NCBI GenBank assembly: GCA_017883235.1
Contig: JADGNY010000062.1
Location: 1 to 39,297, forward strand
Direction of reading: 5' to 3'
Length of the DNA stretch: 39,297 nucleotides
DNA from: Thermoanaerobaculia bacterium
GTDB taxonomy: Bacteria; Acidobacteriota; Thermoanaerobaculia; Gp7-AA8
Positions 2,379 through 33,003 of this stretch are shown piece by piece. Below the pieces are notes generated by a model. It did no database searches. It saw nothing but the letters and a program-made list of their open reading frames with translations, and had not been told where the DNA came from. The stretch's first letter is position 1. Every line of letters begins with the position of its first letter. The position numbers and the translations under genes are program-made.

Positions 2379-2455
2379 GAAACCAGAAACCAGAAACCAG
2401 AAACCAGAAAGGCCCGTTCTAGTTTCTGGTTTCTGGTTTCTGGTTTCATTTCTGG
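2379..2455. repeat. (AAACCAG)n heptamer palindrome between convergent genes
   Basis: The left arm (2379-2410) has four tandem copies of GAAACCA/AAACCAG; the right arm (2423-2455) is the inverted set TTTCTGG, again about four copies, around a short GGCCCGTTCTA-type centre. It lies exactly between the 3' ends of two convergent genes, so the transcript of either strand would fold into a long hairpin and it could serve as a bidirectional terminator. The same heptamer builds the larger element at 32817-33003. Confidence 0.85.
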
Positions 2456-2461
2456 CTCCGT

Positions 2462-4957
2462 TTACTTATCGCCGGTAAACTGGAACTTCGAGACCTCGGA
2501 CTCGAAATCGCGGCCGCTGTTCACGAGGCTCTGCACTGTGGCGTTGAATTCGCGGGCGATGCCATCGTTGACCTGGGCGATTTCAAGCATGGCCTTCGAG
2601 GCATCGGCGATGCGGTCGGTCTCCTGGAGCTGGCGATCGAGGGAATCGCGCATGGCCCGGGCATCCTCGGCGATCTTTTCCAGGGCTGAGGTGATGCCGC
2701 GTCCAGCCAGCGACTGCTCATCAGTGGCGTTCCTGACCTGTGCGGCGATCTCGCGCACGCGTTCGGCCTCCATCGCCAGGAGCTCCGTACCGCGGGCCTG
2801 CTCGCTCGAGGCACGGTTGATCTCGGCGATGTGATCGGACATCCGCGAGGCCACCCCGTGCAGATGGCGGCTGGCCTGGGCCTGATCTTCCAGAGAGCGC
2901 GAGATCTTCGTGGCCATCTCGTACGAATGTCCCGCGCTCCCGACGATCTTCGCTAACGACGCCGAGGCATCGTCGGCCAGATGGACGGTCTCTTCGACAC
3001 GGCGAACGCCTTCCTGCATCTTGGTGGCGGCCTGCTTCGACCCGCTCTGCACCGCCTTGACGATGGCGCTGATCTCCTTCGTCGATCCGCGCGTCCGCTC
3101 GGCCAGCTCGCGGATCTCGTCCGCCACGACCGTGAAGCTTCTGCCGTGTTCGCCCGCCTGCGCGGCGATGATGGCGGCGTTCAGCGCGAGGAGGTTCGTC
3201 CTGTTCGTGATCTCTTCGATGACATGGACGATCTGGCTGATTTGCCCGACGCTGCGCTGCAGATCGTCGAGCGTTTCCGCGGTGCTGTTGGTGACGTCGC
3301 GCGAGATGTTGATTCCGTCGACCGTGTTCGCCACCGCCCCACCGCCTGCCTCGGCGTCTTCGCGAACCTGACGCGAGATGTCAGCGGTCGATTGCGCGCT
3401 GACCCGCAGCTCGGCGATGGTGGAATCCATCTCCGATACGAACGACAGCACTTCCTCGCCGATTCTGGAAAGGACGTCGGCGCGCTGCGACATCTCGTTC
3501 ATCGAGGCGTTCATCTCCGTCGTCGACGACGATGTCTTCTCGACCGACTGGAAGAGGTAGTCCATGCTGCGGGCCACTTCTTCCGACGAGGCCTGCAGTT
3601 CGAGAGCGCGGCTCGATGCGTCCTGCGTCAGCTCCGTGACCGTGTCCGCCGCGCCGAGGACGCCTCTGATGCCGCCGCGTACGTTCTCGACGGCGAGCGA
3701 TGAGTTTCCCGTCAGCGTCGATTGATCGCGCGCGCGGAGCAGAAGGGACTCCGTGCCACCGGTAATGACGCGAACGCCCTCGGTGATCGTCGAGCCGCTG
3801 CCGCCGACGCGTCCGAGGAGCCCGCGCAGATTGGCACGGGTCTCGCCGAAACTGATGGCCAGCTCGCCCACTTCGTCGTCGGAGAAAGCGTGCGACGTCT
3901 TGTTGAAATCACCCTGGGCCATGCTGGCGGCCAGGGCGCGGAGCGCGCGTACGGGCCGGACGACGTCACGCGAGAGGAAAAGCGTCGCGGCCACGAAGGC
4001 AGCCAGCGTGAAGAGCGCGACGATGATCGTGTAGAAGGTGATCTGCAGCGGGATGTTCTGGTAGAGCGACCACGGGATCGTCATCACCAGGATGGAGCCG
4101 TCTTTCAATTTGGAAAAAATCGCCACGTGAGGCGAGATGAACTGGGAGCTGTCACCGCTGCCGATGCTCCGGATGGAGTCGACCTCGGAGGGCGTGAGTG
4201 CGTCGGGAATGCTCGATCGCATCGCACCACGCGGCGGGATGATGACCACCGCGTATTCGGCCGGTACGTATTCGAGAAGCGTATCGACGATGTGCGGATC
4301 GATTTTCGCGGAAAGGTTGGCGCTTTCGAAGACACGCTGGAAGCGGTCCGATGCCGAGGCAATGGCCAGCTCTTCGAGTGTCGTCGATACCTTGGAAGAG
4401 ATCAGCGCTACGAGCGCGGCGAAGGAGATCAGAAACGAGCCGATGAAAACGATGGCGATCTTGCGGCCGAGCGTAAACCGCCGGCCGATGTACCGCAGTG
4501 CGCCGCTATGCATGGCATGCTCGGCAAGCAACCGTTTGCCGGAGGCGTATGCCCAGATCACCGACGGGAAGGCACCGATACACGCCGAGACGAAAAAGTA
4601 ACCCAAGCCGAGCATCGTCGGCATCACCAGAAGCGCGGCGACGATCGCGAAGAGAACACTGCCCGCGCCCCACAAGAGAAACGTGAGCGTCTCCGTACGC
4701 TCGAGGCATTCCGATGCCGGGTCTGAAGCATCTTTCCCGCTCCGGACCGCGACATCGACGGCATCGGCCAGCGGCACAAGCACGATCCAGATCAACACCG
4801 CGTTCACCGTAAAGAACACGGCGAAGAGGCCGATGGTCAACGCTGCCGTACGGAACGACATCCCGATCACCTGGCTGAGAAAAACATACGACAGCGGTCC
4901 GATGACCACCGCGGGTGGCACCAGCAGCGAGACGACGTACTTATGTGAGAAGGACAC
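2462..4957 (-). CDS. Methyl-accepting chemotaxis protein with multi-pass membrane N-terminus
   Basis: 831 residues, start GTG at 4957. Hydrophobic segments at about 8-28, 37-61, 92-114, 117-137, 167-188 and 304-328 suggest six membrane passes. Residues about 189-303 would be the only sizeable extracytoplasmic part and have no sensor domain I recognise. A HAMP linker follows (about 329-382; [20 protein letters not shown] then [11 protein letters not shown]). The rest is the long coiled-coil signalling domain, whose hairpin tip (about 587-615) carries NLLALNAAI and [20 protein letters not shown], the CheA/CheW contact region. The tip reads [15 protein letters not shown] where AAIEAARAGEQGRGF is usual. 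No other che gene is in the window, so it is an orphan receptor. It ends in a convergent arrangement with the peptidase gene. Confidence 0.93.
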
Positions 4958-5293
4958 GGGTGGCGGGATTATATGTGCGTCTTACCTGTCATCCGCCTGT
5001 CATTACCGAGCCCGCCGGAGCCGGGACGGTGAAAACAGATGGAGATGCGGTACTGACGCGGCTGGAACGCGCAGGACCACGGCGGCTTGCGTCTCACGTG
5101 GATGTGATGGCGAGCAACCGTGTCAGTGATAACCACGCTTCGCTCCGGTCACGGGATCGGTCAAATTCTCCACCGTGAGCGAGCACGTCTTCGATACCGT
5201 CCTCCGTTTCTGAAACCGCAAGAGCCATCGGCCTGGCCGGGACAGCGAAGCTGTAGCCGGCAGTCCGCGACAACCCGAAAAAGGAGAGAACAG
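4958..5293. other. Divergent intergenic region with candidate structured gltA leader
   Basis: No convincing gene in 336 bp between the chemoreceptor and citrate synthase starts. The last ~85 bases before citrate synthase (about 5206-5275) can fold: ACAGC-GAA-GCTGT (5242-5254) is flanked by CCGG on both sides (5237-5240 and 5257-5260), and an upstream GTTTC/GAAAC pair is present. A structured 5' leader is plausible, but I could not match it to a known riboswitch class. The start is fixed by AAGGAG at 5281-5286. Confidence 0.35.
4968..4973 (-). promoter_or_regulatory. Possible -10 element for the chemoreceptor gene
   Basis: The reverse strand reads TATAAT here, a perfect sigma-70 -10 box, only 11 bp before the GTG start at 4957. 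A start point about 7 bp downstream would leave almost no leader. I see no convincing -35 box at 16-18 bp; two TGACAG words lie nearby at other spacings. Either the mRNA is nearly leaderless, or the true start codon is further inside the gene, or the match is chance. Confidence 0.3.
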
Positions 5294-6571
5294 ATGAGCA
5301 TTGCAACCCTGCTGCTGAAAGGAAAAGAGTACGACTTTCCTGTCCTTGAAGGGACAGAAGGCGAAACGGCCATCGACATCACGTCGCTACGCGCCAAGAG
5401 CGGCGCCATCACCCTCGATCCCGGCTACGCGAACACCGGCTCGTGCACCAGCGCGATCACGTTCATCGACGGAGAGAAGGGAATCCTGCGCTACCGCGGC
5501 CATGCCATCGAAGATCTGGCCGGCACCGCGAGCTTCGTCGAGGTCTGTTACCTGCTGATCCACGGAGAGCTGCCCACGCCGGCGGAACTGCTTGTCTTTG
5601 ACGATCAGTTGACACGGCACAGCCTCATCCACGAGGACATGAAGAAGTTCTTCGAAGGCTTCCCTCCCTCCGCCCATCCGATGGCCATTCTCTCGGCCAT
5701 GATCGCGTCCCTCTCTGCCTACTATTCCGAGCACGACAACGAGTTGAACATCATCCGGCTCTTGTCGAAGGCGAAGACGATCGTGTCGTTCGCTTACAAG
5801 AAATCGATCGGACAACCGTTCATCTATCCGTGCAATGCTCTGAGCTATACGCAGAACTTCATGCAGATGATGTTCGCCGTGCCCGCCGAGGACTACGTTG
5901 TTTCGCCAGTCGTCGACCGCGCCCTCAATCTGCTCCTGATCCTGCACGCCGATCACGAACAGAACTGCAGCACGTCGACGGTGCGGATGGTGGGCAGCAG
6001 TGGCGCGAACCTCTTCGCGTCGATCTCGGCCGGCATCTGCGCGCTGTGGGGACCGCTGCACGGCGGCGCCAATCAGCAGGTGATCGAGATGCTGCAACAG
6101 ATCCGCCAGTCTGGCCAGAGCGCGCGGAAGTTCGTGGAACGCGCCAAGGAGAAGGACTCCGGCTCCAAGTTGATGGGGTTCGGGCACCGCGTTTATAAGA
6201 ATTTCGACCCGCGTGCCACGATCCTGAAGAATGCCGCCGACCAGGTGCTGGCCGCCCTCGGCATGCGCGACCCGCTGCTCGACACGGCCATGGAACTGGA
6301 GCAGATCGCGCTGAGCGATCCGTATTTCATCGAACGGAAGCTCTATCCGAACGTCGACTTCTACAGCGGCATCCTCTACCGCGCCATGGGCATCCCCACC
6401 AACATGTTCACGGCCATGTTCGCCCTGGGCCGCCTCCCCGGCTGGATCGCACAGTGGAAGGAAATGGTCAAAGAGCCGAAGACGAAGATCAATCGTCCGC
6501 GGCAGTTGTACGTCGGCAAGACCGCTCGCGAGGTCGAGTCAGTCGAAACCCGCATAGCTGCAACAGTTTGA
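5294..6571 (+). CDS. gltA: Citrate synthase
   Basis: 425 residues, the usual size of type II bacterial citrate synthase. It condenses acetyl-CoA and oxaloacetate to citrate in the TCA cycle, in the cytoplasm. The catalytic residues are present: H256 in WGPLHGGAN, H298 in GFGHRVYKNFDPRA and D355 in YPNVDFYSG; LHADHEQNCSTST (218-) is the conserved helix before them. The N-terminus has the small beta domain typical of the E. coli-like hexameric type, so NADH or 2-oxoglutarate regulation is possible but not visible. I chose ATG 5294 because AAGGAG lies 7 bp upstream and the protein then begins as family members do; the frame is open further upstream to 5120 but that part is unlike the family. Confidence 0.96.
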   Translation: MSIATLLLKGKEYDFPVLEGTEGETAIDITSLRAKSGAITLDPGYANTGSCTSAITFIDGEKGILRYRGHAIEDLAGTASFVEVCYLLIHGELPTPAELLVFDDQLTRHSLIHEDMKKFFEGFPPSAHPMAILSAMIASLSAYYSEHDNELNIIRLLSKAKTIVSFAYKKSIGQPFIYPCNALSYTQNFMQMMFAVPAEDYVVSPVVDRALNLLLILHADHEQNCSTSTVRMVGSSGANLFASISAGICALWGPLHGGANQQVIEMLQQIRQSGQSARKFVERAKEKDSGSKLMGFGHRVYKNFDPRATILKNAADQVLAALGMRDPLLDTAMELEQIALSDPYFIERKLYPNVDFYSGILYRAMGIPTNMFTAMFALGRLPGWIAQWKEMVKEPKTKINRPRQLYVGKTAREVESVETRIAATV

Positions 6572-6693: not shown

Positions 6694-6752
6694 CGAGGTC
6701 TCGCGGTGTCTGAATCAAACGACCGCGAAACCTCGCAACCTCGCAACCGCGC
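6694..6752. repeat. Octamer (AACCTCGC)n repeat with an inverted arm at the SDR gene start
   Basis: CGAGGTCTCGCGGT (6694-6707) is the reverse complement of ACCGCGAAACCTCG (6721-6734) apart from one base. The right side continues as tandem octamers CCTCGCAA, CCTCGCAA, CCGCGCAA. The design (tandem short word plus inverted partner) matches the heptamer palindromes elsewhere in the window. Here it overlaps the first codons of the SDR reductase and may have added residues to its N-terminus. Confidence 0.6.
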
Positions 6753-7443
6753 AACCGCGTTGATCACCGGCGGCTCCCGCGGCATCGGCCGGGCTGTCGT
6801 CGAGCGCCTCACGCGCGACGGCTGGAATGTCGCCTTTACCTACGCGACGTCGACGGATCTGCCCGAGGGCCTGGCGCTTCAGGGTGACGTCCGCGACTCC
6901 GCGCGCAATGCCGCCATCGTCGACGAGGTGATCGCGAAGTTCGGCACGCTCGACGCGCTGGTGAACAACGCCGGCATCCGCCGCGACGCGCTGCTCTACA
7001 ACATGACTGACGAGGAATGGCGCGAGGTCATGCAGACGAACCTCGATGGTGCGATGTCGATGACGAAGGCGGCGTTAGCGCCGATGATGAAACAGCGCCG
7101 CGGCGCGATCGTGAACGTCGCTTCGCTCAGCGGACTTCACGGCGTCGTCGGGCAGACGAACTACGCCGCCGCGAAGGGCGCGCTGATCGCCCTCACTCGC
7201 TCACTGGCGCGGGAAGTCGCGCGCAGCGGCATCCGCGTCAACTGCGTCGCGCCGGGCCTCGTCGATACCGACATGATCGCCATGCTCGACGCCGAGGTGA
7301 AGAAGGAGATGATCCGCACGATTCCGATGCGGCGCGAAGTGAAGCCCACCGAGGTCGCGGCGGCGATCGCGTTTTTGCTAAGCGACGATGCCAGCGCGAT
7401 TACGGGGCAGGTGCTGTGCGTGGATGGGGGAACGTCGGCGTAG
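6706..7443 (+). CDS. fabG: Short-chain dehydrogenase/reductase, FabG-like 3-oxoacyl-ACP reductase
   Basis: 245 residues from GTG 6706. The Rossmann motif is TGGSRGIG (21-28), followed by NNAG (87-90) and the catalytic S140 (NVASLSG), Y153 and K157 (YAAAK); PGLVDTDM follows the active site. This is the classical NADPH-dependent SDR pattern and it is closest to FabG, which reduces 3-oxoacyl-ACP in fatty acid synthesis. It stands alone rather than in a fab cluster, so another 3-oxo substrate (for example acetoacetyl-CoA) is possible. The start is uncertain: residues 5-16 are encoded by an octamer repeat, there is no clear Shine-Dalgarno, and family members usually start only 4-8 residues before ALITGG. 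The 3' end is 4 bp from the convergent membrane protein gene. Confidence 0.85.
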   Translation: MSESNDRETSQPRNRATALITGGSRGIGRAVVERLTRDGWNVAFTYATSTDLPEGLALQGDVRDSARNAAIVDEVIAKFGTLDALVNNAGIRRDALLYNMTDEEWREVMQTNLDGAMSMTKAALAPMMKQRRGAIVNVASLSGLHGVVGQTNYAAAKGALIALTRSLAREVARSGIRVNCVAPGLVDTDMIAMLDAEVKKEMIRTIPMRREVKPTEVAAAIAFLLSDDASAITGQVLCVDGGTSA

Positions 7444-7870: not shown

Positions 7871-8795
<925 letters not shown>

Positions 8796-10177: not shown

Positions 10178-10262
10178 TTAAAAGGCAGAAGGCAGAAGGC
10201 AGAGGGCAGAAATGGCCCCGAAGCACTTCTGCCTTCTGCCTTCTGCTTTCTGCCTTTAAAAA
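10178..10262. repeat. (GGCAGAA)n heptamer palindrome after the mla operon
   Basis: The left arm (10178-10211) holds about four GGCAGAA-type heptamers, preceded by TTAAAA. The right arm (10227-10260) is the inverted set TTCTGCC, ending in CTTTAAA. The arms differ at only a few positions. It begins at the mlaD stop codon and ends 51 bp before the ugd start, so it probably terminates the mla transcript. It has the same architecture as 2379-2455 but a different heptamer. Confidence 0.85.
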
Positions 10263-11518
10263 GGCGGCGCCGTCGAAGTTGTCGTCGGCGGCGGCACATC
10301 CGGCGTTTCGCTCTTCGGCACCGGCTTCACGGCCGGCGGCGCCGGTGGCGGCGCGGCGGAAGGCCTGGACGAATCGGTGTCGTAACGCTTTTGAATTCCG
10401 CTCTGCTGCCGGTTGCGAATGAGCCAGCGAAGAAGTTTCGACTCGTTGATACCGATCAGGATGTCGTTCACCGATTCGTAAACCGATGGATCGCTGATCA
10501 ACTTGCCGGCCGTCCCTTCGCCTCGATTGATCTTGGCCACGGTGTCGTTGAGCTGACGCAGGAGACCGTTGAACTCGACCAGCGTCTTATCGCCGTACTC
10601 TTTGTCGTTCATCAGCCGTGGGACGAGACCCTGGCCGCTCTGGTAGGACGCGGTGAGCGCGGCCAGGTTCGCCGAGGTGAGACGAAGGTTCTCGACGAGG
10701 TCCAGGACTTTCTTCTTCCCATCGGGATCATTGAGCAGCGCCGGCAACGCGCCCTGTCCGCTCTTCAGACTTCCCTCGACCTCGGTGACGAGCGTCTGCA
10801 GCGAACGAGCGCTTTCCTGGAGCGAGCCGGTGAATGACGCGGCAAAGGCATCGTCGTAGACCAGCTTCCCAACCAGCCCCTTGCCGCTCTCGACATGCCC
10901 GAGGATGGCGTTTGTTTTGTTGAGCGTCGTCAGAAACGTATCGGTGATCCGCTGCTTCGTCTCCGGTGCACTCGTCAGCTCGCCGATGAGTCCTTCGCCG
11001 TGATCGACGCGCCCGAGGATGTTCTTCAACGAATACGAGATCTGCACGAAGTTGTCGACGAGGTCTTCACCGGAGGAGATGAGCTGGTCGACGTTGGTTT
11101 GCCGGGCTGCCGGGATCAGCGAGCCGGGCTCGTCCGCGTCGAACTTCGGACTGCCCGGCGAGATGTCGATGTAGCTGTCGCCGGCGAGGAGGCCGAGTTT
11201 CTTCAGCCGGGCCCGCGAGTCGGTGCGGATGCGGTCCGCGTACTTGCGGTCGACCATCAGTTCGATGTCGACGTCGCGCATCTTCGGATCGCGCGGGAGA
11301 GTGATGTCTTTGATGACGCCGACGGTGACGCCGGAGATCTTGACGGGGTTGCCTTCCGCCAGGCCGGTGACGTTGTCGAGCCGGACTTTGTATTCGTTCT
11401 TCCGCGAGAAGATCTTCTGCTCCGATCCGATGAAGAAGACGAAGATCATCAGCACCAGCAGCGCGGCCGCAACGAGAAGCCCGACGCGGATCGTTTTTTC
11501 TTTTGGTTTGGTTGCCAT
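10256..11518 (-). CDS. mlaD: MlaD/MCE-family lipid-binding subunit of an ABC transporter
   Basis: 420 residues. One N-terminal membrane helix (about 12-31) anchors an MCE domain (about 38-120, with VTGLAEGNPVKISGVTVG). A long helical periplasmic region follows, with repeated G-(E/K/Q)-G motifs: GEGLIGEL, GKGLVGKLV, GQGALPALL, GQGLVPRLM and GEGTAGKLI. The C-terminal ~45 residues are proline-rich and probably disordered. MCE proteins form hexameric rings that carry phospholipid between inner and outer membranes with MlaE and MlaF. At 420 residues it is much longer than E. coli MlaD (about 180) and nearer to the longer helical-bundle MCE proteins of other phyla. It is last in mlaE-mlaF-mlaD, 31 bp after mlaF, and its stop lies inside a heptamer palindrome. 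Confidence 0.88.
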   Translation of the reverse strand: MATKPKEKTIRVGLLVAAALLVLMIFVFFIGSEQKIFSRKNEYKVRLDNVTGLAEGNPVKISGVTVGVIKDITLPRDPKMRDVDIELMVDRKYADRIRTDSRARLKKLGLLAGDSYIDISPGSPKFDADEPGSLIPAARQTNVDQLISSGEDLVDNFVQISYSLKNILGRVDHGEGLIGELTSAPETKQRITDTFLTTLNKTNAILGHVESGKGLVGKLVYDDAFAASFTGSLQESARSLQTLVTEVEGSLKSGQGALPALLNDPDGKKKVLDLVENLRLTSANLAALTASYQSGQGLVPRLMNDKEYGDKTLVEFNGLLRQLNDTVAKINRGEGTAGKLISDPSVYESVNDILIGINESKLLRWLIRNRQQSGIQKRYDTDSSRPSAAPPPAPPAVKPVPKSETPDVPPPTTTSTAPPF

Positions 11519-11549
11519 CGTTTTGTACCGGTTTCCTGCTTCCCAGATT

Positions 11550-12380
11550 TCAGTGAGTCGGCTGCGCGGCCGTGACGGCGGATGCTTTGAGGAACTCGCG
11601 CAGCACGGGGTGATCGGCGTTGCGTGCTTCTTCCATCGTCCCTACCCATTCGAAAACACCCTCATTGAGAAAGGCGATGCGGTCGCCGACCGAGAACGCC
11701 GACTGGATGTCGTGCGTGACCACCACCGAGGTGACGTTCAGTTTCGACTGCAGATCGATGATCAGCTCATTGATCTTGTGCGCCGTGATCGGATCGAGAC
11801 CCGTGGTCGGCTCGTCGTAGAGAATCATCTTCGGATCGAGGACGATCGACCGCGCCAGGCCGACGCGCTTGCGCATTCCGCCGGAGAGGTCGACCGGCAT
11901 CAGTTGCTCGGAGTTCGGCAGATTGACCAGCCCGAGTTTCTCGCGCACGGCTCTGCCGATCTCTTCCTCGGACATCTCGGCATGCTCGCGCAGCGGGAAG
12001 GCGATGTTTTCGAAGACGGTCATGGAGTCGAAGAGCGCGCCGCTCTGGAAGAGCATCCCGAACTTCTTGCGGACGCGGTACAGCTCCTCTTCCGGATGGT
12101 CGGTGATGTCTTCGTCCTCGACGATGACCCGGCCGGTGTCGGGCGCTTCGAGCCCGAGCATGTGCCGCAGCGTGACCGACTTCCCGCTGCCCGATCCGCC
12201 GAGGATGACCAGGACCTCGCCGCGATAGACCTTGAGATCCGCGCCGCGCAGGACCTGCTTCGTGCCGTAGGCCTTGTTGACGCCGCGGAACTCGACGAAG
12301 AGATCGCGGACATGCGTCCTCCTGTCAGGAGTCTGGCGCGGCTCGGCGCGGCGGTCGGCAACGATCGTCGATTCAGTCAT
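11550..12380 (-). CDS. mlaF: MlaF-type ABC transporter ATPase
   Basis: 276 residues. Walker A is GGSGSGKS (61-68), the signature LSGGM (165-169) and Walker B ILYDE (186-190), followed by PTTGLDP and a VVTHD switch histidine. The pattern and the MlaE/MlaD neighbours identify the ATPase that powers lipid transport across the envelope. The first ~28 residues before the core (rich in R, D and T) are an unusual charged extension; an internal start near residue 24 cannot be excluded. The start codon shares one base with the mlaE stop (TGATG). Confidence 0.93.
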   Translation of the reverse strand: MTESTIVADRRAEPRQTPDRRTHVRDLFVEFRGVNKAYGTKQVLRGADLKVYRGEVLVILGGSGSGKSVTLRHMLGLEAPDTGRVIVEDEDITDHPEEELYRVRKKFGMLFQSGALFDSMTVFENIAFPLREHAEMSEEEIGRAVREKLGLVNLPNSEQLMPVDLSGGMRKRVGLARSIVLDPKMILYDEPTTGLDPITAHKINELIIDLQSKLNVTSVVVTHDIQSAFSVGDRIAFLNEGVFEWVGTMEEARNADHPVLREFLKASAVTAAQPTH

Positions 12381-13259: not shown

Positions 13260-13341
13260 GGTTGCTGGGTTACTTACCCTCCGTCCCGGCATCGACCACC
13301 GAGACCATGCAACGCTGCAACCCAGCAACCCAGCAACCCAA
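13260..13341. repeat. Octamer (CCCAGCAA)n palindrome between PBP and mlaE
   Basis: GGTTGCTGGGTT (13260-13271) pairs perfectly with AACCCAGCAACC (13319-13330). The right side continues as tandem octamers CCCAGCAA repeated about 2.5 times. It lies just 3' of the PBP stop and upstream of mlaE, so it is placed to terminate the PBP transcript. Confidence 0.75.
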
Positions 13342-17589: not shown

Positions 17590-18130
17590 GGTCAGCAAAA
17601 GGAAGCACGCGAACTTCAAAACGAAGCACGCGAGCGTCGAATCGATGCGCGCTAACCTCAGAACGGAGCACCCGAGGATCGAAACAACGCAATTGCTCTT
17701 GCCATGGTAAGAGTCAATGTTCGAAACGAAGCAATAATATCTCACCATGGTAAGAACAGGAGGTTCAGAACGAAGCCCGTGAGGATCGAAACGATGCTCG
17801 CGAGGGTCGAAACGAAGAACGCGAGGATCGAAACGATCCTCGCGTTCTTGCCATGGTAAGAGCGTTAGCGTCATAACGGCGATATGGATCTCACCATGGT
17901 TACAGTTTGACGCTCAAAATTACGAAAGGTCTCTTACCGTGGTTCAAATCGAGGTCGAAAACGAAGCAAGCGAACGTCAAAATGATGCTCGCGAGTTTCA
18001 AAACGAAACAAGCGATGGTCGATGCGAAGCAAATGCTCTTACCATGGTACGAGTGTCAGCGTCGAAAACGACATTCGTTTTGATGCTTGCCAGCTTTGTT
18101 TCGACCTGGCGCACATCGTTTTGATCCTGA
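17590..18130. repeat. Phased 21-bp degenerate repeat array with CCATGG palindromes
   Basis: Unit consensus is about TCGAAACGAAGCACGCGAGGA. Unit starts at 17616, 17637, 17658 and 17679 are exactly 21 bp apart; 17765, 17786, 17807 and 17828 are again 21 apart; so are 17977, 17998 and 18019. Between runs lie six palindromes near CTCTTACCATGGTAAGAG, with CCATGG (or CCGTGG) at 17702, 17745, 17851, 17894, 17938 and 18042. After about 18065 the unit appears in inverted orientation. Because 21 is a multiple of three, frames stay open and give heptad-like peptides, but no frame spans the array without stops and there is no start signal. I read it as non-coding repetitive DNA. Confidence 0.8.
17815..17849. 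repeat. Perfect 16-bp hairpin with AAA loop inside the array
   Basis: Positions 17815-17830 and 17834-17849 are perfect reverse complements, separated by AAA. It is produced by one 21-bp unit running into an inverted copy, and the CCATGG palindrome follows one base later. There is no T tract, so it is not a canonical terminator. Confidence 0.85.
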
Positions 18131-18284
18131 CGGAGCAAGCGAGCGCCCGATCGCATACCGGTTTGATCGAACGATTCGAACCTCAGATCGCCTGCACGCA
18201 ATGTTGCCGCGGAACGTCGCAACGTCGCCTGCAAACCGTCAGAAGGTCGCACCGATCGCCGGGACCTTCGTGGCCATTCGTGGC

Positions 18285-18830
18285 CAGCGAGAGGGTCAAG
18301 CGAGAGGGGAGGGTCAAGCGAGAGGGTCAGGCCCTTCCTTCAAGAGAGAGCGAGGAGAGGGTCAGAGAGAGGGTCAGAGGGTCAGAGAGAGAGGGTCAGA
18401 GGGTCAGGCCCTTCCTTCGGAGGGTCAAGAGCGAGGAGCGAGAGGGTCAGAGCAGCGAGAGGGTCAGGCCCTTCCTTCAGGGTCGGCCCTTCCTTCAGCG
18501 AGAGGGCCCTTCCTTCAGCGAGAGGGCCCTTCCTTCAGCGAGAGGGTCAGGCCCTTCCTTCGGCCCTTCCTTCGGAGGGTCAAGAGCCCTTCCTTCCGAG
18601 AGCAAGGGGCCTTCCTTCCGAGAGGAGAGGAGGGTCAGGGTCCGAGAGGGTCAGGGTCCGAGAGGGGTCCGAGAGGGGGTCCGAGAGGGTCAGGCCCTTC
18701 GTCATCCCTTGCGTCATCCCTTGGAGGGAAAGGGAGGGAAAGGGGGCCAGGCCGTTAGAGGGGGTCGGAAGGGTCGGAAGGGGGGTCGGAAGGGTCAGGC
18801 CCTTCGTCTTCCCACCGCAAGAGAGCCATG
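18285..18830. repeat. Purine/pyrimidine mosaic of shuffled short words
   Basis: About 545 bp are built almost wholly from a few words (GAGAGGGTCAG, GCCCTTCCTTC, GGAGGGTCAAGAG, AGCGAGAGG) joined in varying order. GGTCAGGCC occurs six times, always in this orientation (about 18325, 18401, 18461, 18544, 18688 and 18792). G-runs at 18726-18746 and 18760-18794 fit the G-quadruplex pattern. Frames are open only because stop codons are absent from the words. It lies about 200 bp from the 3' end of the RAYT gene. Confidence 0.85.
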
Positions 18831-19040
18831 CCTGGCTCATGTGGCTGGAGGGATCGTGCTGGAAGGATCGCGGTGAGAGGCTTTCACGCTCCGAGTAAGG
18901 CGACATTCCTTTCGCTACATTTCTGAGCCACGACGCGCAGGTGTCGCCTGACGTGGTTCTCAATCCGGCAAGGAAACCAGAAACAGCTTTCCGCTGTAGG
19001 CCGGTTACTCGCAGGTTGACGCTACGCAGCGCGCCGGCTC
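18831..19040. other. Gap between mosaic and transposase
   Basis: About 210 bp with no gene or recognisable element. Word repetition stops near 18830. Confidence 0.4.
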
Positions 19041-20000
19041 TTACGCGAGCTGCAAGGTGGTGATCGCTTGTCGCGCGAGACCTTGTAACACTTCGTCGGC
19101 GGCCAGTTCACGATCACCGCGGCGAACCAGCGTCGAAATGTACCCGGAGCTTCGAAGTCGGAGAGCGGCGGCGATCTCGCGGAGACGCAGCAGCCCTTCG
19201 TTCCATGCAATCCACGCGGCCAGCATGCGGGGGACGCCGCCGTGTCGATGCCGCAGATCCTTCTCGTCAATACCGCAAGTCTTCGCAACCGCCTTCACGA
19301 CCGTGGCCATCTTGAGCCGAGGGATCAGCCGTTGCGTCATCGCGTGCTCGTCGCTCCGTGGCTTCTCCGCGACAACCTTCCGCATCTTCTCGATCCACTC
19401 CGCGCTGCCGAGGTAAATCTGCCCGACTAGCTTCTCCCAGATGGACTCCGTCGAGCCGATCTTCGCCGTCACGTATTCGCGATACATGTCGTGGCACTTC
19501 GGGCGCTCCGTATGGAGATCAAACAGCCACTCGGAGTAAAGCCACTCCGGGATCAGCTCGAGGCCGGCGTGAGCTCGGTAGCTCGACCACCGGTACTCGG
19601 CCGGATCGGCGACCATGCCCGCGCGGACGGGATTCAGGACGGTGTAGCGCCTCACCTCGTCCAGGTAATTCTGCTCGTCGACGAGAATCCCCTTGTAGCG
19701 GCCCTGGAAGAGGTGTCCCACACGCTCGTATCGCTTGTTGAATATGCGAACGTATTCGCTGTTCAGCCAGTGCATCCCCTTCGCGAGCGTGCGGAACGGT
19801 GTCTCGATGACGAGATGGTAGTGGTTCGTCATCAGGCAGTACTCGTGGAGACGCCATCGGAACCGTTTCACCGCGGCGGCGAGTAAGGAAAGGAACAGCA
19901 GGCGGTCGCGGTCTTCTCGGAAGATGTCCTTTCGCTCGTTCCCTCGGGATGTGACGTGCCAGAAGGCGCCTTCGTATTCGAGTCTCAGAGGTCTTGACAT
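19041..20000 (-). mobile_element. REP-associated tyrosine transposase (RAYT, Y1/HUH family)
   Basis: 319 residues. The IS200-like Y1 domain is complete: HVTSRGNERKDIF near the N-terminus, the metal-binding HxH in MTNHYHLVIETP (H60, H62), and RRYTVLNPVRAGMV with the likely nucleophile Y119. Residues about 215-319 form a second helical domain (CGIDEKDLRHRHGG, then LREIAAALRLRSSGYISTLVRR) resembling the DnaA C-terminal/HTH domain often fused to RAYTs. RAYTs cut single-stranded REP hairpins, are usually single-copy, and spread REP/REPIN elements rather than themselves. The ATG follows a perfect CCGAGG-GAT-CCTCGG hairpin (20003-20017) that could hide the start in mRNA. Flanks are rich in GGCCTGACC words in opposite orientation on each side. 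Confidence 0.92.
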
Positions 20001-20139: not shown

Positions 20140-20445
20140 ATGGCCCCACTCACTTTCACTCACTTTGGCCGAGGCCTGACCCCATTCACCCTTTGACCCC
20201 ATTCACCCTTCGCATTCACCCTTCGAGAGAAGCAGAGGCCTGACCCCATTTTGACCCCATTTGACCCTGGCCCCATTGACCCCATTCACTCCTTTGAGGC
20301 CTGGCCCCGATCAACAATCCGAGTGGCCCAAGTATCAGTCCGTAAATGAGTTACGCACGACCGAAAACCGAAGGCCTGACCCTCCTGATGACCCTACTGA
20401 TGCTCTCGTGATGACCCTCCTGATGCTCTCGTGATGCTCTCGTAG
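20140..20445. repeat. Word mosaic on the 5' side of the RAYT
   Basis: Tandem and scrambled copies of GACCCCATTCACCC, GAGGCCTGACCCC and AGAGAAGCAGAGGC occupy about 20140-20310; after a unique stretch, a second mosaic of GATGACCCTCCT and GATGCTCTCGT occupies about 20376-20444. GGCCTGACC copies (20174, 20238, 20373) are all in the orientation opposite to those on the 3' side of the gene. Confidence 0.8.
20325..20382 (+). repeat. ~55-bp dispersed element, copy A
   Basis: Shared pattern: AAGTATC, about 10 bases, GAGTTANGC, then GAAAATCGAAGGCCTGACCCT. Copy A has GAGTTACGC and AAAACCGAAGGCCTGACCCT. Copies B (21443-21502) and C (21632-21690) lie in the same orientation beyond the 140-aa gene. Confidence 0.7.
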
Positions 20446-23584: not shown

Positions 23585-25630
23585 ATGAAGATAGCAGCCG
23601 CCGTCATTCTCCTCGCCGCCGCTAGTGTTTTCGCGCAACCCGCGCCGGAAAAACAACCCCTCACCGCCCTCCCCTACACGCCGAGCCTCGACATCCCGTC
23701 GATGGATCGGACGGCGAATCCGTGCGCCGACTTCTACCAGTACTCGTGCGGCGGATGGATGACCAACAACCCCATCCCGCCTGACCAGGCGTCGTGGAGC
23801 GTCTACGGCAAGGTCACCGAGGAGAATGAGGAGTACCTCTGGGGAATCCTCCTCGATGCCGCCAAGCCGCGCGCCGACCGCACGGTCGTGCAGCAGAAGA
23901 TCGGCGACTATTTCGACGCCTGCACCGACGAGTCGCACATCGAGGAGCTGGGGGCCAAGCCGCTGCAGCCGCTGTTGAACGAGATCGCCGCGCTGAAGGC
24001 GAAGCACGAGCTGGGAACGTTTCTCGCGCACCAGCATTTGCGCTCGAGCGGAAGCGGCTGGCTCTTCGGCTTCGGCTCGACGCAGGACTACAGCGACGCC
24101 TCGCAAGTCATCGCCGAGGCCAGCGCGGGCGGGCTGGCGTTGCCGGATCGCGACTACTACCTCAAGACCGACGCGAAATCGAAAGAGATCCGCGAGAAGT
24201 ATCTCGCCCACGTCGCGGCGATGCTGTCGCTGATCGGCGAGTCGAAGGCGGAAGCGAAGAAGGATGCCGCCACGGTGATGCGCATCGAGACCGCGCTGGC
24301 GAAGGCATCGCTCACCCGCGTGGAGCGCCGCAATCCTTACAACCTGGCACACAAGATGACGGTGGTGGAAATAGACAAGATCGCGCCGGCGCTCGAATGG
24401 AAATCGTATCTCGCCATAAGCGGCGTGATCGGCAACGTGCACACGCTGAACATCACCGAGCCGAAATTCTTCAAGGCGGTACAGAAGGAGCTGACGTCCG
24501 TCCCCTTGGCGGACTGGAAGGCCTACCTGCGCTGGCACGCCGTTCATAGCCGCGCGCCGTATCTCTCGAAGAAGTTCGTCGAGGAGGATTTCAACTTCTA
24601 CCGCAAGACGCTGCGCGGCGTGAAGGCGATGCCCCCGCGCTGGAAGCGCTGCGTCCAATACGTCGACCGCGCCCTCGGCGAAGCGCTGGGGCAGGAGTTC
24701 GTGGCCCGCACCTTCACCGCGGAAACGAAGGCCAAGACGGTCGACATGACCAAGCGCATCGAGACAGCCATGGAGGATGAGATCAAGAATCTCGACTGGA
24801 TGACGCCGGCCACGAAGCAGCGCGCGCTGGAGAAGCTCCACGCGGTGGCGAACAAGGTCGGTTACCCCGACCGCTGGCGCGACTACGGCAAGCTGAACGT
24901 CGTGCGCGGCGACTTCTATGGCAACGGCACGCGGGCGATCGTGTTCGAATCGGCGCGCGATCTGAACAAGATCGGCAAGCCGGTCGACCGCGACGAGTGG
25001 GGGATGACGCCGCCGACGGTGAACGCCTACTACGACCCGCAGATGAACGACATCAACTTCCCCGCCGGCGTCCTGCAGCCGCCGCTGTACGACGCCAAGC
25101 TCGACGACGCACCGAACTACGGCAACACCGGCTCGACCATCGGCCACGAGCTGACGCACGCCTTCGACGACGAAGGCCGCCAGTTCGACGCGCAGGGCAA
25201 TCTGAAGGACTGGTGGACGCCGGACGACGCCAAGAACTTCGAAGACCGCATCAATTGCGTCCGCGACCAGTACGCGGGCTACACGATCGTCGACGACATC
25301 AAGATCAATTCGAAGCTGACCTCGGGCGAAGACGTCGCGGACCTCGGCGGAACCCTCCTGGCCTACATCGCCTGGAAGGCAGCCGATCCCAACGACACGA
25401 CGCCGATCGACGGATTCACGCCCGATCAGCGCTTCTTCATCGGCTTCGCCCAGTGGGCGTGTGAGAACCAGCGGCCGGAGAATCTGCGCGCCAATGCCAT
25501 CACCAATCCGCACTCGCCGGGCAAATACCGCATCAATGGGATCGTGTCCGATCTCCCGCAGTTCCAGAAGGCATTCAATTGCAGCGCGGACTTACCGATG
25601 GTGAGGGCGAAGGCGTGCCAGGTGTGGTGA
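23585..25630 (+). CDS. Secreted M13-family zinc endopeptidase (neprilysin/PepO-like)
   Basis: 681 residues, the usual length of bacterial M13 peptidases. Signal peptide about 1-18 (ends VFAQP). The substrate strand NAYYDP begins at 480; the zinc site is H521-ELT-H525 with the third ligand E582 in GEDVADLGG and D586 behind it; the C-terminus CQVW matches the CxxW ending typical of the family. M13 enzymes cleave short peptides on the outer side of the membrane. Its own promoter probably lies in the 72-bp divergent gap. Confidence 0.95.
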   Translation: MKIAAAVILLAAASVFAQPAPEKQPLTALPYTPSLDIPSMDRTANPCADFYQYSCGGWMTNNPIPPDQASWSVYGKVTEENEEYLWGILLDAAKPRADRTVVQQKIGDYFDACTDESHIEELGAKPLQPLLNEIAALKAKHELGTFLAHQHLRSSGSGWLFGFGSTQDYSDASQVIAEASAGGLALPDRDYYLKTDAKSKEIREKYLAHVAAMLSLIGESKAEAKKDAATVMRIETALAKASLTRVERRNPYNLAHKMTVVEIDKIAPALEWKSYLAISGVIGNVHTLNITEPKFFKAVQKELTSVPLADWKAYLRWHAVHSRAPYLSKKFVEEDFNFYRKTLRGVKAMPPRWKRCVQYVDRALGEALGQEFVARTFTAETKAKTVDMTKRIETAMEDEIKNLDWMTPATKQRALEKLHAVANKVGYPDRWRDYGKLNVVRGDFYGNGTRAIVFESARDLNKIGKPVDRDEWGMTPPTVNAYYDPQMNDINFPAGVLQPPLYDAKLDDAPNYGNTGSTIGHELTHAFDDEGRQFDAQGNLKDWWTPDDAKNFEDRINCVRDQYAGYTIVDDIKINSKLTSGEDVADLGGTLLAYIAWKAADPNDTTPIDGFTPDQRFFIGFAQWACENQRPENLRANAITNPHSPGKYRINGIVSDLPQFQKAFNCSADLPMVRAKACQVW

Positions 25631-25641
25631 TTGGATGAGGG

Positions 25642-25708
25642 CGGGAGTCGGGGGTCGGGGGTCGTAGTTGAGGCCTCCGACTCCCGACTCCCGACTCCCG
25701 ACTCCCGA
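25642..25708. repeat. (GACTCCC)n heptamer palindrome
   Basis: The right arm (25677-25708) has four tandem CCGACTC/GACTCCC heptamers; the left arm (25642-25664) has three inverted ones (GGGAGTC, GGGGGTC, GGGGGTC). It lies 11 bp after the M13 stop and 9 bp before the next start, so it also provides GAGGAGA as the likely ribosome site of the VWFA gene. The same heptamer builds the element inside the debranching enzyme gene. Confidence 0.85.
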
Positions 25709-30930: not shown

Positions 30931-32907
30931 ATGATCGCTTTCGGCCCCGACGTGCTGCACGATTTCGAACGCGCCTCGGGGCTCGAATGGCTGGAGACGA
31001 ACGGTCTGGGGGGCTGGGCGAGCTCGTCGATCACGTTCGCGAACACGCGGCGGTATCACGGGATGCTCGTCGCCGCCTTGCCCGGCCGCACGGAGCGGAC
31101 CGTGCTCGTCGCGAAGCTTAATGAGACCGTGGCCGGCGTCGATCTCGCCGCCAACCGTTTCCCGGGCTGCATCCACCCGCGCGGCTTCGAGCATCTGGTC
31201 TCGTTCCAACGCGGCCTCTTTCCGGTATGGGAGTACGTCACCGGCGGCGTCACCCTGCGCAAAACGATTGTTGCGCCGCACGGCAGGAACGTGACCATCG
31301 TTTTGTACGAGGTCATCGACTGCGCATCGCCCTTTCCACTCCGGCTCTCCCCCTTCCTCGCCGGCCGCGACTATCACTCCCTCATCCACAACAGCGACGC
31401 GGCCCTCCCCTACGTCCATATCAGCGTGCCCGGCGCAACGTTCGAAGCGAAGCCCGATCGCTGGCGGAATTTCGTCTACGACCGCGAGCGTGAACGCGGC
31501 CTCGATTGCGAAGAGGACCTCTTCACCCCCGGCTCGTACGTCATCACTCTGAAGCGCGGCGACGTGTTGCCGGTGGTGCTTGCGACGGAGGACCGGAAAT
31601 GGGATGCCCTGGCAATGATCGAAGAAGAACGCCGGCGGAGGCTTGCGCTTTACGGGGGTCGGGAGGCGGGGGTCGGGAGTCGGAGAGAGGATTCCGTATC
31701 GAAATCTCCGACCCCCGACTCCCGACTCCCGACTCCCGATCTGATACTCGCTGCCGACCAGTTCCTCATCGAGCGCGACGACAAAAAGACCATCATCGCC
31801 GGCTATCACTGGTTCACCGACTGGGGACGCGACACAATGATCGCGTTGCCGGGACTCTGCCTCGCCACCGGCCGCTTCGATGATGCAAAACAGATCCTCC
31901 GCCGCTGGCTGGCCGCGGCCAGCAACGGGATGATTCCCAACCGCTTTCCCGACGGCACGAACGAGCCTGAGTTCAACTCAGCCGATGCCGGCCTTTGGCT
32001 GTTCATCGCCATCTGGCGCTATCGCGAAGCGAGCGGCGACGAAGTCTTCGTCCGCGAGGAAGCGTTGCCCGTACTTCGCGAGGCCATCAACTGGCTCGAG
32101 CGCGGCACGCGGTACAACATCCACGTCGACCTCGACGGCCTCCTTTATGCCGGCGCGCCAGGCGTGGCGCTGACGTGGATGGATGCGATCGTCGACAGCG
32201 AGGCGGTGACGCCGCGGCGCGGCAAGCCTGTGGAGATCAACGCGCTCTGGTACAACGCCCTCCGGATCGTGGCCACGCTCACCGGCGATGCCGCGCTGGC
32301 GTCACGCGCCGATACGGTGAAGGAGGCGTTCGAAACAGCGTTCTGGAATCGCGAGGCGCAGTGTTGTTTCGACGTGGTGAACCCGAACGATGCATCGATC
32401 CGCCCGAATCAGCTCTTCGCCATCGCTCTGCCGTTCCCGCTTTTCGACGACGTGCGCGCCGAGGAGATCCTCAGCGTGTGCGAAGCCAAGTTGCTCACGC
32501 CTGTCGGTCTTCGCACGCTCGCGCCATCCGATCCGTGCTATCACGGCCAACTCCTCGGCGATCAACACGCGCGCGACACCGCCTATCACCAGGGAACCGT
32601 CTGGCCCTGGCTCCTCGGCGCCTACATCGACGCCCTGGTTCGTTATCGCGGCGACGCCGGCCGCGAAGCCGCGCGCGGCCTCATCGCCAACATGCAGGCC
32701 CATCTCGCCGACGCCGGCGTCGGCACAATCAGCGAAATCTTCGACGGCGACGCCCCCCACACTCCGCGCGGTTGCATTGCACAGGCATGGAGCGTCGGGG
32801 AGGTACTGCGGGTATCAAAACCAGAAACTAGAAACCAGAAACCAGAAACCAGAAATCAAAAGCAGAAACCAGAAACCAGAAACCAGAAACGCAAAACCAG
32901 AAACTAG
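30931..32907 (+). CDS. Glycogen debranching enzyme (amylo-alpha-1,6-glucosidase, GDE_C type) with repeat-derived inserts
   Basis: 658 residues. The N-terminal domain (about 13-240) begins GLEWLETNGLGGWASSS with ANTRRYHGMLVA, typical of archaeal/bacterial GDE. The (alpha/alpha)6 catalytic domain (about 271-628) has YHWFTDWGRDTMIALPGL, TWMDA, PVEINALWYNAL and QGTVWPWLLG; it removes alpha-1,6 branch stubs from glycogen. Two parts are not native: residues about 242-270 are encoded by a (GACTCCC)n palindrome that fits in frame between the domains, and the last ~29 residues (KPETRNQ repeats) come from an (AAACCAG)n array that also supplies the stop codon. The original C-terminus was probably near 628. 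Followed by glgB. Confidence 0.88.
   Translation: MIAFGPDVLHDFERASGLEWLETNGLGGWASSSITFANTRRYHGMLVAALPGRTERTVLVAKLNETVAGVDLAANRFPGCIHPRGFEHLVSFQRGLFPVWEYVTGGVTLRKTIVAPHGRNVTIVLYEVIDCASPFPLRLSPFLAGRDYHSLIHNSDAALPYVHISVPGATFEAKPDRWRNFVYDRERERGLDCEEDLFTPGSYVITLKRGDVLPVVLATEDRKWDALAMIEEERRRRLALYGGREAGVGSRREDSVSKSPTPDSRLPTPDLILAADQFLIERDDKKTIIAGYHWFTDWGRDTMIALPGLCLATGRFDDAKQILRRWLAAASNGMIPNRFPDGTNEPEFNSADAGLWLFIAIWRYREASGDEVFVREEALPVLREAINWLERGTRYNIHVDLDGLLYAGAPGVALTWMDAIVDSEAVTPRRGKPVEINALWYNALRIVATLTGDAALASRADTVKEAFETAFWNREAQCCFDVVNPNDASIRPNQLFAIALPFPLFDDVRAEEILSVCEAKLLTPVGLRTLAPSDPCYHGQLLGDQHARDTAYHQGTVWPWLLGAYIDALVRYRGDAGREAARGLIANMQAHLADAGVGTISEIFDGDAPHTPRGCIAQAWSVGEVLRVSKPETRNQKPETRNQKQKPETRNQKRKTRN
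31654..31740. repeat. (GACTCCC)n heptamer palindrome inside the debranching enzyme gene
   Basis: The left arm (31654-31687) has GGGGGTCGGGAGGC-type inverted heptamers; the right arm (31705-31740) has CGACCCC followed by three CGACTCC units. The block is about 84-87 bp, keeps the frame and contains no stop, encoding GREAGVGSRRE and PTPDSRLPTPD. It falls in the linker between two domains, where an insert is tolerated. Confidence 0.85.
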
Positions 32908-33003
32908 AAACCAGAAACCAGAATGCTGCGCTCCGCCGCCATTTCTGGTTTCTGGTTTCTAGTTTCTGGTTTTGCGTTTCTGGTTTCTGGTTTCTAGTTT
33001 CTG
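32817..33003. repeat. Long (AAACCAG)n palindrome with 61-nt near-perfect arms
   Basis: The left arm (32863-32923) and right arm (32943-33003) are reverse complements at 60 of 61 positions, around a 19-nt loop (32924-32942). The arms are runs of AAACCAG with irregular words (ACTAG, GCAAAACC) that are mirrored exactly. More (AAACCAG) copies (32817-32862) precede the left arm. The element contains the debranching enzyme stop (32905-32907) and ends 14 bp before glgB. Confidence 0.92.

What the first reader, a model, noticed from the sequence alone, without database searches (positions are those of the whole stretch)
2379..2455. Heptamer palindromes as a class: each site uses its own 7-8 bp word
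Five sites share one design, tandem short words then the inverted tandem, but with different words: AAACCAG (2379, 32817), GGCAGAA (10178), GACTCCC (25642, 31654), CCCAGCAA (13260), AACCTCGC (6694). Most lie between transcription units. Cyanobacterial STRR elements are also tandem heptanucleotides, but the palindromic layout and word diversity within 35 kb are striking. This suggests a process that makes such elements rather than one spreading sequence.
Basis: partly seen in the sequence, partly recalled or inferred. Interest (0 to 1): 0.65.

Follow-up and report, generated by a model that had tools for sequence, protein, structure and literature searches.

The report
Paired heptamer hairpins with changing words
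This soil bacterium carries many small DNA hairpins built from about four copies of a seven-letter word facing about four inverted copies; the design is constant while the word differs between families and lineages, which points to a still unidentified process that spreads and perhaps rewrites them.

Summary
In detail: five compact inverted pairs of tandem heptamers (2379, 10182, 25642, 31653, 32818); octamer sites 6694 and 13260 are half-palindromes. Shuffles gave no arrays. In 1.18 Mb of the same 6.92 Mb Acidobacteriota genome I found 85 pairs, 80 of period 7; a blind subsample predicts about 300.

"Each site its own word" is wrong. Words form families (AAACCAG, AAGGCAG, GGGNGTC and others) with strict rules: arms near 31 bp, one order per word in this genome, arms 1-150 bp apart, one variable position in each of four families tabulated, closeness to stop codons. 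Variants of one loop recur in 13 of 33 AAACCAG elements, mostly with unrelated flanks, so whole units spread. One loop motif occurs with three neighbouring words, though this rests on four elements. Relatives carry other hairpins, other words or nothing at compared spots.

The kind is in print: Xanthomonas GGGAATC convergent pairs (PMC4692102) and Geobacter paired 7-8-mers (PMC2700814). Added here: several words under one design, turnover, in-frame copies, and words without G-tracts, which speaks against G-quadruplexes as the common basis. Best reading: non-autonomous mobile hairpins with arms kept uniform; enzyme unknown.

The parts
2379..2410 (+). left arm, (GAAACCA)4.6, element 1 (AAACCAG family)
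2417..2447 (-). right arm, inverted AAACCAG units, element 1
   Evidence: folds at -54.8 kcal/mol, z -10.5
6722..6759 (+). octamer array (ACCGCGCA type) at the 5' end of a short-chain dehydrogenase gene; short inverted partner at about 6695-6707; weak site
   Evidence: z -3.7; a diverged form is present in congener G002
10182..10210 (+). left arm, AAGGCAG family, between MlaD and UDPGDH genes
10226..10253 (-). right arm, inverted AAGGCAG units
   Evidence: z -9.8
13260..13271 (-). single inverted partner GGTTGCTGGGTT of the octamer array at 13308
   Evidence: pairs in the fold
13308..13340 (+). octamer array AACCCAGC; weak, half-palindromic site
   Evidence: z -4.4
25642..25664 (+). left arm, GGGNGTC family, 12 bp after the stop of the M13 peptidase gene (stop at 25630)
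25677..25708 (-). right arm, inverted GGGAGTC units
   Evidence: z -5.4
31653..31683 (+). left arm, GGGNGTC family, inside and in frame with gene 30931-32907
31708..31739 (-). right arm, same element; insert absent from the G001 ortholog
   Evidence: z -8.4
32818..32923 (+). three consecutive AAACCAG arrays, left side of a nested element
32942..33002 (-). two inverted arrays, right side of the nested element; loop of the commonest AAACCAG loop family

Best explanation
The sites are short non-autonomous mobile hairpin elements, typically about 80 bp: two arms of about 31 bp (four tandem heptamers plus a few bases) facing each other around a loop. Shown here: elements with variants of one loop sit at many places; arms come in pairs, in one order per word in this genome, 1-150 bp apart; the window's elements are absent from a congener wherever the place could be compared, while three inserts in genes are shared by the genus. 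Inferred: (1) a trans-acting factor that reads direction recognises the tandem heptamers, each word having one free position, and moves or copies the unit; (2) within a family the arms are kept uniform by slippage or gene conversion, so loops drift while arms stay; (3) now and then a variant unit takes over all units and a new word is born (AAACCAG, AAAGCAG, AAGGCAG on one loop motif); (4) copies survive mainly just after stop codons, where a strong hairpin is tolerated or stands in for an older one. No enzyme was identified.
For: Pairing and order: in six word families, 78 consecutive array pairs in the usual order all lie 1-150 bp apart, none from 150 to 5000 bp; the opposite order occurs 0 times within 160 bp and 11 times beyond (238-3567 bp); 3 plus 1 same-direction neighbours within 60 bp. 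Each of 12 words with two or more elements shows one order only, e.g. 31 of 31, 12 of 12, 9 of 9, 8 of 8. An exact GGGAGTC pair pattern has 22 places in G000 and 12 in G002; the opposite layout 0 in 297 genomes. Arms are 30-32 bp in 85 of 170. Dispersal: 13 of 33 AAACCAG elements have variants of one loop (70 of 528 loop pairs similar, shuffled control 0), median flank score 7.5; AAGGCAG 4 of 9. Word change: 5 cross-word loop pairs share an 11-mer, shuffled mean 0.15, maximum 1. One variable position: GGG[A95 G78 T19 C3]GTC of 195 units; AAAC[C272 T26 G1]AG of 299; AA[G81 A56 T1]GCAG of 138; AATGTT[G31 C16 A2 T1] of 50 (units with more than two differences left out). Turnover: elements 2379, 10182 and 25642 are absent at the syntenic place in G002; exact triple AAACCAG is absent from both congeners but has 239 hits in G006 of another genus. 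Insertion marks: direct duplications of 18 bp (L128) and 22 bp with two mismatches (L066). Stop codons: in 48 co-directional gaps median distance 4 bp against 23 for random placement.
Against: No enzyme: none of 9 Y1 transposase loci (about 1.5 kb each side) carries a heptamer pair. Clear flanking duplications in only 2 of 85. None of 231 GGGNGTC loop pairs is similar, which simple copying does not predict. In a glycosyltransferase gene the 110-bp 'loop' is conserved host sequence, so arms need not arrive as one compact unit. Within the AAACCAG loop cluster a few pairs also have similar flanks (scores 23, 27, 28.5), i.e. local duplication. The word-change evidence rests on five pairs among four elements (L155, L140, L137, L065), and at 9 bases sharing is only slightly above shuffles (10, mean 4.85, maximum 9). 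Order is not universal: of 14 IMG/VR stretches with triple AAACCAG, my finder gave pairs of that word only in L187, in the opposite order, and none in the usual order.
Confidence: 0.45

Rival explanations
1. In-place origin: polymerase slippage expands a heptamer near an existing hairpin and a template switch at the replication fork copies it in inverted orientation a short distance away. No unit moves; words are local accidents. (Slippage with a 7-nt polymerase footprint is cited as a proposal in PMC4679880, passage read.)
For: Orthologous spots hold different words or plain hairpins; arms vary in unit number; GGGNGTC loops all differ; arms can enclose conserved host sequence; close range of 1-150 bp.
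Against: The same word at many unrelated places, and loops shared by 13 of 33 AAACCAG elements; one order only, which a template switch does not predict; arms are not mirror copies of each other: mirrored unit identity is about what unit frequencies predict in three families and below it in GGGNGTC.
Confidence: 0.2
2. Paired binding sites of a host DNA-binding protein (regulator or nucleoid protein), kept by selection; the heptamer is the recognition word with one free position and the two arms bind a dimer or bridge.
For: One variable position per word in four families, fixed order and coupling, about 31 bp arms; the Geobacter authors proposed IHF/HU sites for similar pairs (PMC2700814, passages).
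Against: Several unrelated words in one genome would need several proteins; loops shared between unrelated places; sites mostly at gene ends rather than promoters, 15 of 85 between divergent genes; absent from the congener at the three places compared.
Confidence: 0.15
3. Hairpins serving as transcript ends: any strong hairpin after a stop codon is favoured, and tandem heptamers are one way of making it.
For: Median 4 bp from the stop codon in co-directional gaps; very stable folds; by eye, several relatives have unrelated hairpins at the place of the 10182 element.
Against: 15 of 85 between divergent genes and 10 inside genes; hairpin strength does not explain tandem units, one order per word or shared loops; mismatches across GGGNGTC arms. 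U-tracts were not scored.
Confidence: 0.1
4. Arms are written on both sides of resident DNA by a dedicated enzyme, so the loop is the old sequence.
For: Conserved first 35 codons of a glycosyltransferase between the arms, ungapped against outgroup G010; possible loop homology (REDS against RDDF) in the debranching enzyme; lysine-rich linker between arms in a LigD-like gene; GGGNGTC loops all differ.
Against: Shared loops in AAACCAG and AAGGCAG; in an exporter gene the loop is not clearly related to the linker of orthologs.
Confidence: 0.1

Closest known systems
GGGAATC heptameric repeats of Xanthomonas (Rehm et al. 2015, PMC4692102; passages read)
   Same: Heptamer units with degenerate positions, mostly four units, convergent pairs (70 and 75 cases among 186 and 183 repeats), mostly intergenic and often within 50 bp of stop codons, 7-11% intragenic, generally not linked to insertion sequences.
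   Different: One word studied, read as a G-quadruplex element. Here several words share the layout, most without G-tracts, with family-specific loops and turnover between congeners.
Paired 'putative global regulator binding sites' of Geobacter metallireducens (PMC2700814; passages and supplementary legends read, figures not held)
   Same: Several words in one genome (octamers GTTGCTYN and TCTCCGTS[Y], heptamer MTYCTGA), three to five tandem units, pairs on opposite strands at variable distance; also a family of four GGGACCG units found in and between genes.
   Different: Other words and another phylum; read by the authors as regulator sites; loop families or orthologous turnover not described in the passages read.
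STRR sequences of cyanobacteria (Mazel et al. 1990, recalled)
   Same: Tandem heptanucleotides with several words.
   Different: Direct arrays; PMC4692102 reports only a few inverted pairs for its G-rich repeats in Nostoc PCC 7120.
P6b repeats of the Nostoc tRNA-Leu intron (recalled; PMC4476775 seen in a search listing only)
   Same: Short repeats in a stem-loop, two word classes.
   Different: One locus in a group I intron, not dispersed.
REP/REPIN elements with RAYT transposases (PMC2817692, PMC3116915, PMC3733652; search listing only)
   Same: Short dispersed extragenic palindromes spread in pairs.
   Different: Arms here are tandem heptamers, and no RAYT locus in the genome carries them.

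Membership tests
Convergent heptamer repeats of the Xanthomonas type | tandem heptamers, about four units per array | tested here: met
   80 of 85 pairs have period 7; 85 of 170 arms are 30-32 bp
Convergent heptamer repeats of the Xanthomonas type | convergent inverted pairs | tested here: met
   78 close pairs in the usual order, 0 in the opposite order within 160 bp
Convergent heptamer repeats of the Xanthomonas type | mostly intergenic, near stop codons | tested here: met
   75 of 85 intergenic; median 7 bp from 3' gene ends, own gene caller
Convergent heptamer repeats of the Xanthomonas type | G-tract units able to form G-quadruplexes | tested here: not met
   GGGNGTC has a G-tract; AAACCAG, AAGGCAG and AATGTTG do not. 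Met by one family only
Cyanobacterial STRR | tandem heptanucleotides as direct arrays without inverted partner (recalled) | tested here: not met
   156 of 185 arrays of six word families lie in close inverted pairs
REP/REPIN | linked Y1 (RAYT) transposase beside the element | tested here: not met
   9 Y1_Tnp matches in the genome, none with a heptamer pair within about 1.5 kb; one has an octamer pair
REP/REPIN | GTAG or CGTC tag at one end of the palindrome | not tested
   no systematic tag search was made
MITE of a DNA transposon | target-site duplication | tested here: not met
   clear duplications in 2 of 85, one more by eye at L125
MITE of a DNA transposon | autonomous relative with the same terminal repeats | tested here: inconclusive
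   no same-word pair in usual order at 150-5000 bp in 1.18 Mb; 5.7 Mb of the genome not read
Intrinsic terminator | stable hairpin after the stop codon | tested here: met
Intrinsic terminator | U-tract and termination activity | not tested
   no RNA data; U-tract not scored
Known structured RNA | match to an Rfam family | tested here: not met
   0 matches in the window at gathering score

The most novel reading that the evidence does not exclude
A word-writing element system: one conserved machinery, present in several phyla, lays two facing arrays of about four heptamers on either side of a short stretch of DNA; the word is set by an exchangeable recognition or template part, so each lineage has its own vocabulary, and words evolve by unit replacement while architecture and arm length stay fixed. 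The Xanthomonas, Geobacter and Acidobacteriota repeats would be one system.
Probability: 0.1. Interest if true: 0.85.

Novelty: new variant of a known kind. Interest (0 to 1): 0.55.

Why it matters
An excess of heptamer repeats in bacterial genomes has been noted for years with little explanation beyond polymerase slippage (PMC4692102 and PMC4679880, passages). The rules found here (about four units, one order per word within a genome, coupled arms, one free position, shared loops) separate the design from any one sequence. They speak against G-quadruplexes as the common basis and make the question testable: some factor should recognise tandem heptamers in a directional, paired way. They also show a source of in-frame linker peptides in housekeeping genes.

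Tried and rejected
RAYT link: rejected; 9 of 9 Y1 loci lack heptamer pairs, although L165 has an octamer pair. Fixed target-site duplication: rejected as a general signature. Flanks as pre-existing palindromes: true for a minority only (5 of 85 at score 10 or more, 0.8% in controls). Arms as mirror copies of each other: rejected; mirrored unit identity is 0.77, 0.44 and 0.43 against 0.76, 0.39 and 0.39 expected in three families, and 0.15 against 0.29 in GGGNGTC. Loop always host-derived: supported in the glycosyltransferase gene, unclear elsewhere, contradicted as a general rule by shared loops. Arm length independent of period: suggestive only (period 9: 24-34 bp, n = 4; period 8: median 27, n = 20). 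Octamers do not obey the order rule: the CGCGGAG type occurs in both orders in G001. Solved-structure search of the debranching-like protein found distant glycogen debranching enzymes and did not cover the insert. One paper search gave nothing. No protein structure was predicted, because no candidate protein emerged. Gene contexts rest on a gene caller of my own.

Rows dropped or doubled: pairs whose arms differ by more than one letter, or lie more than 160 bp apart, were not counted; the loop clustering used loops of 5-60 bases and the cross-word test 8-60; units with more than two differences were left out; the 85 pairs count at least two nested sites twice (window 32859/32894, L038).

Full report
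What was checked. The window is a whole 39,297-bp contig (C87) of a 6.92 Mb genome in 246 contigs; named relatives of one of its proteins are Acidobacteriota. Five compact inverted pairs of tandem heptamers lie at the stated places and two octamer sites are weaker. Neither 10 window shuffles nor one shuffle of a 746 kb sample gave an array.

How common. Reading 1,184,200 bp of the genome (and the window) with a pair finder gave 85 pairs: 80 of period 7 and 5 of period 8, median loop 18 bp. On contigs picked by number only, 21 pairs in 480 kb predict about 300 in the genome; the window is about three times denser. In 753 kb of relatives there are 33 pairs: 26 of period 7, 5 of period 8, 2 of period 9, with words such as GATTTTG, AGAGATC, GGCTCATA and AATGTTG beside GGGAGTC.

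Words are families. Leaving out stretches fetched for AAACCAG (but keeping 20 that lie on contigs known to hold it), 49 pairs divide into AAGGCAG 10, GGGNGTC variants 19, AAACCAG 7, AAGGATG 3, the rest 1-2 each. Triple AAACCAG has 101 overlapping hits in the own genome, none in the two congeners and 239 in G006 of another genus; 4 of 60 genomes, the own one included, have any. A compact GGGAGTC pair pattern occurs in 2 of 297 genomes of the phylum, the own one and congener G002 (congener G001 was not in that draw).

Rules of construction. (a) Order: each of 12 words with two or more elements has one order only. Of 33 AAACCAG places, 29 have both arms as exact units in that order; the other 4 show only the right arm as exact units, three of them with a clearly degenerate left arm. 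The opposite GGGAGTC layout is absent from 297 genomes. Outside this lineage the rule fails or is untested: in 14 IMG/VR stretches with triple AAACCAG my finder gave pairs of that word only in L187, in the opposite order, and octamers of the CGCGGAG type occur in both orders in G001. (b) Arms: 85 of 170 are 30-32 bp; in most elements listed the loop-side phase is the same, CCAGAA|loop|TTCTGG, GTCGGA|loop|TCCGAC, GCAGAAGTG|loop|CACTTCTGC (by eye). (c) Coupling: 78 pairs in usual order, all within 150 bp; no opposite pair within 160 bp; four same-direction neighbours. (d) One variable position per word in four families. (e) Mirrored units of the two arms are about independent in three families; in GGGNGTC they are anti-matched, 11 of 72 equal where 39% is expected, 0 of 5000 permutations as low. 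That may reflect an unequal-armed ancestor or selection against perfect palindromes; AAACCAG arms are nearly perfect.

Where they sit. With a gene caller of my own, 48 of 85 lie between co-directional, 15 between divergent and 12 between convergent genes, and 10 inside genes. In co-directional gaps the median distance to the stop codon is 4 bp, random placement gives 23, and 37 of 48 are closer to the stop than to the next start. Inside genes they read through in frame, e.g. GVGSRES...PTPDSRLPTPD.

History at single places. Between MlaD and UDPGDH the window has AAGGCAG. Of 10 relatives read by eye, G013 has a heptamer pair with the word GATTTTG, G009 an octamer pair, G001, G002, G010, G012, G015 and G017 unrelated hairpins, and G003 and G016 none that is clear. 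At 2379 congener G002 has a different palindrome with two GTCTAAA units per arm, seen twice in that stretch; at 25642 other palindromes; at 13260 nothing; at 6694 a diverged form of the same octamer palindrome. The gene that holds the 31653 element and borders 32818 is not at that place in G002; its insert is missing from the G001 ortholog. By contrast GGGNGTC-type inserts in a glycosyltransferase, an E1 dehydrogenase-like gene and a LigD-like gene (named from reading the sequences) are present in G000, G001 and G002, while the outgroups aligned lack the repeat peptides: G010 for all three genes, G003 for two, G012 for one. So families differ in age.

Spread and rewriting. Variants of one 18-nt loop occur in 13 of 33 AAACCAG elements; flanks are unrelated for most pairs (median score 7.5), similar for a few (up to 28.5). 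AAGGCAG has a shared loop in 4 of 9; none of 231 GGGNGTC loop pairs is similar. The motif TGCTCCGCTCA occurs in loops of AAACCAG, AAAGCAG and AAGGCAG elements: 5 cross-word pairs share 11 bases against 0.15 expected, but they involve only four elements. These words differ by single steps, and mixed arms exist. I read this as whole-unit dispersal plus, less surely, concerted change of all units in an element.

Insertion marks. Direct duplications of 18 and 22 bp flank the elements at L128 and L066, and a longer one was seen by eye at L125. At L128 the duplication seems to span an ATGA gene overlap, so that both genes stay whole (read). Some AAACCAG elements sit at the centre of another palindrome: L140:4043, L135:3480, L137:3863. 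In the glycosyltransferase gene the arms enclose the enzyme's conserved first 35 or so codons, so arms can flank resident sequence. I have no single mechanism that explains both this and the shared loops, other than two routes or loop replacement.

No enzyme. The genome has 9 Y1 transposase matches, one in the window (19041-20000, minus strand), none with a heptamer pair nearby. Rfam gave nothing in the window.

What is known. Rehm et al. 2015 (PMC4692102, passages) describe GGGAATC heptamers in Xanthomonas: mostly four units, 70 and 75 convergent pairs, near stop codons, generally not with insertion sequences. The Geobacter metallireducens genome paper (PMC2700814, passages and legends) lists several classes of tandem 7-8-mers in pairs on opposite strands at variable distance. 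PMC4679880 (passages) treats TAACTGA direct repeats and cites slippage as a proposal. One search named Acidobacteria and others were general; their listings showed no report of this class in that phylum, but only open-licence papers are held and only the listed rows were seen. The class is therefore known in kind; the multi-word rule set, turnover, loop evidence and in-frame copies are what I add.

Noticed in passing
window 19041-20000 (-), with repeats at 17596-18870 and 20147-20443: A Y1 (RAYT-like) transposase gene flanked by degenerate tandem TGACCCC and GAGGGTCA repeats and by CCATGG-centred palindromes; a separate repeat system in the same window.
   Followed up: partly
L166 around 11440-11550 and 4460-4560 (G002): A palindrome of about 86 bp with ends GGGGTCAGGTCTAAAGTCTAAAGT occurs twice in this stretch of congener G002, once at the place of the window's 2379 element.
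   Followed up: partly
L128:4029-4097: Element that seems to sit at an ATGA stop/start overlap of two genes, with an 18-bp direct duplication that leaves both genes whole.
   Followed up: partly
L187:5942-6013 and 7969-8044 (IMG/VR): AAACCAG-type pairs in the opposite order (GGTTTCT first), with mixed AAGGTTT units.
   Followed up: no
GGGNGTC elements of the own genome: The variable fourth base differs across the two arms far more often than chance (often one arm mostly A, the other mostly G).
   Followed up: partly
L154:13331 and 14177; L077:3740; L111:14622: Octamer pairs of the ACGCGAAG / CGCGGAG type, the two in G001 with arms of 22-24 bp and opposite orders; apparently another class.
   Followed up: no
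L083 and L085, between the MlaE and PBP genes: A Fic-like gene (named from reading the sequence, no family search) sits in this intergenic spot in G001 and G003 but not in the window.
   Followed up: no
L126, gene 2498-5845 (-): An exporter-like gene (named from reading the sequence) is 89% identical to G006 over the 134 residues after the insert but 74% and 71% to the two congeners over the whole query; it carries an AAACCAG insert, and G006 is the other AAACCAG-rich genome.
   Followed up: partly
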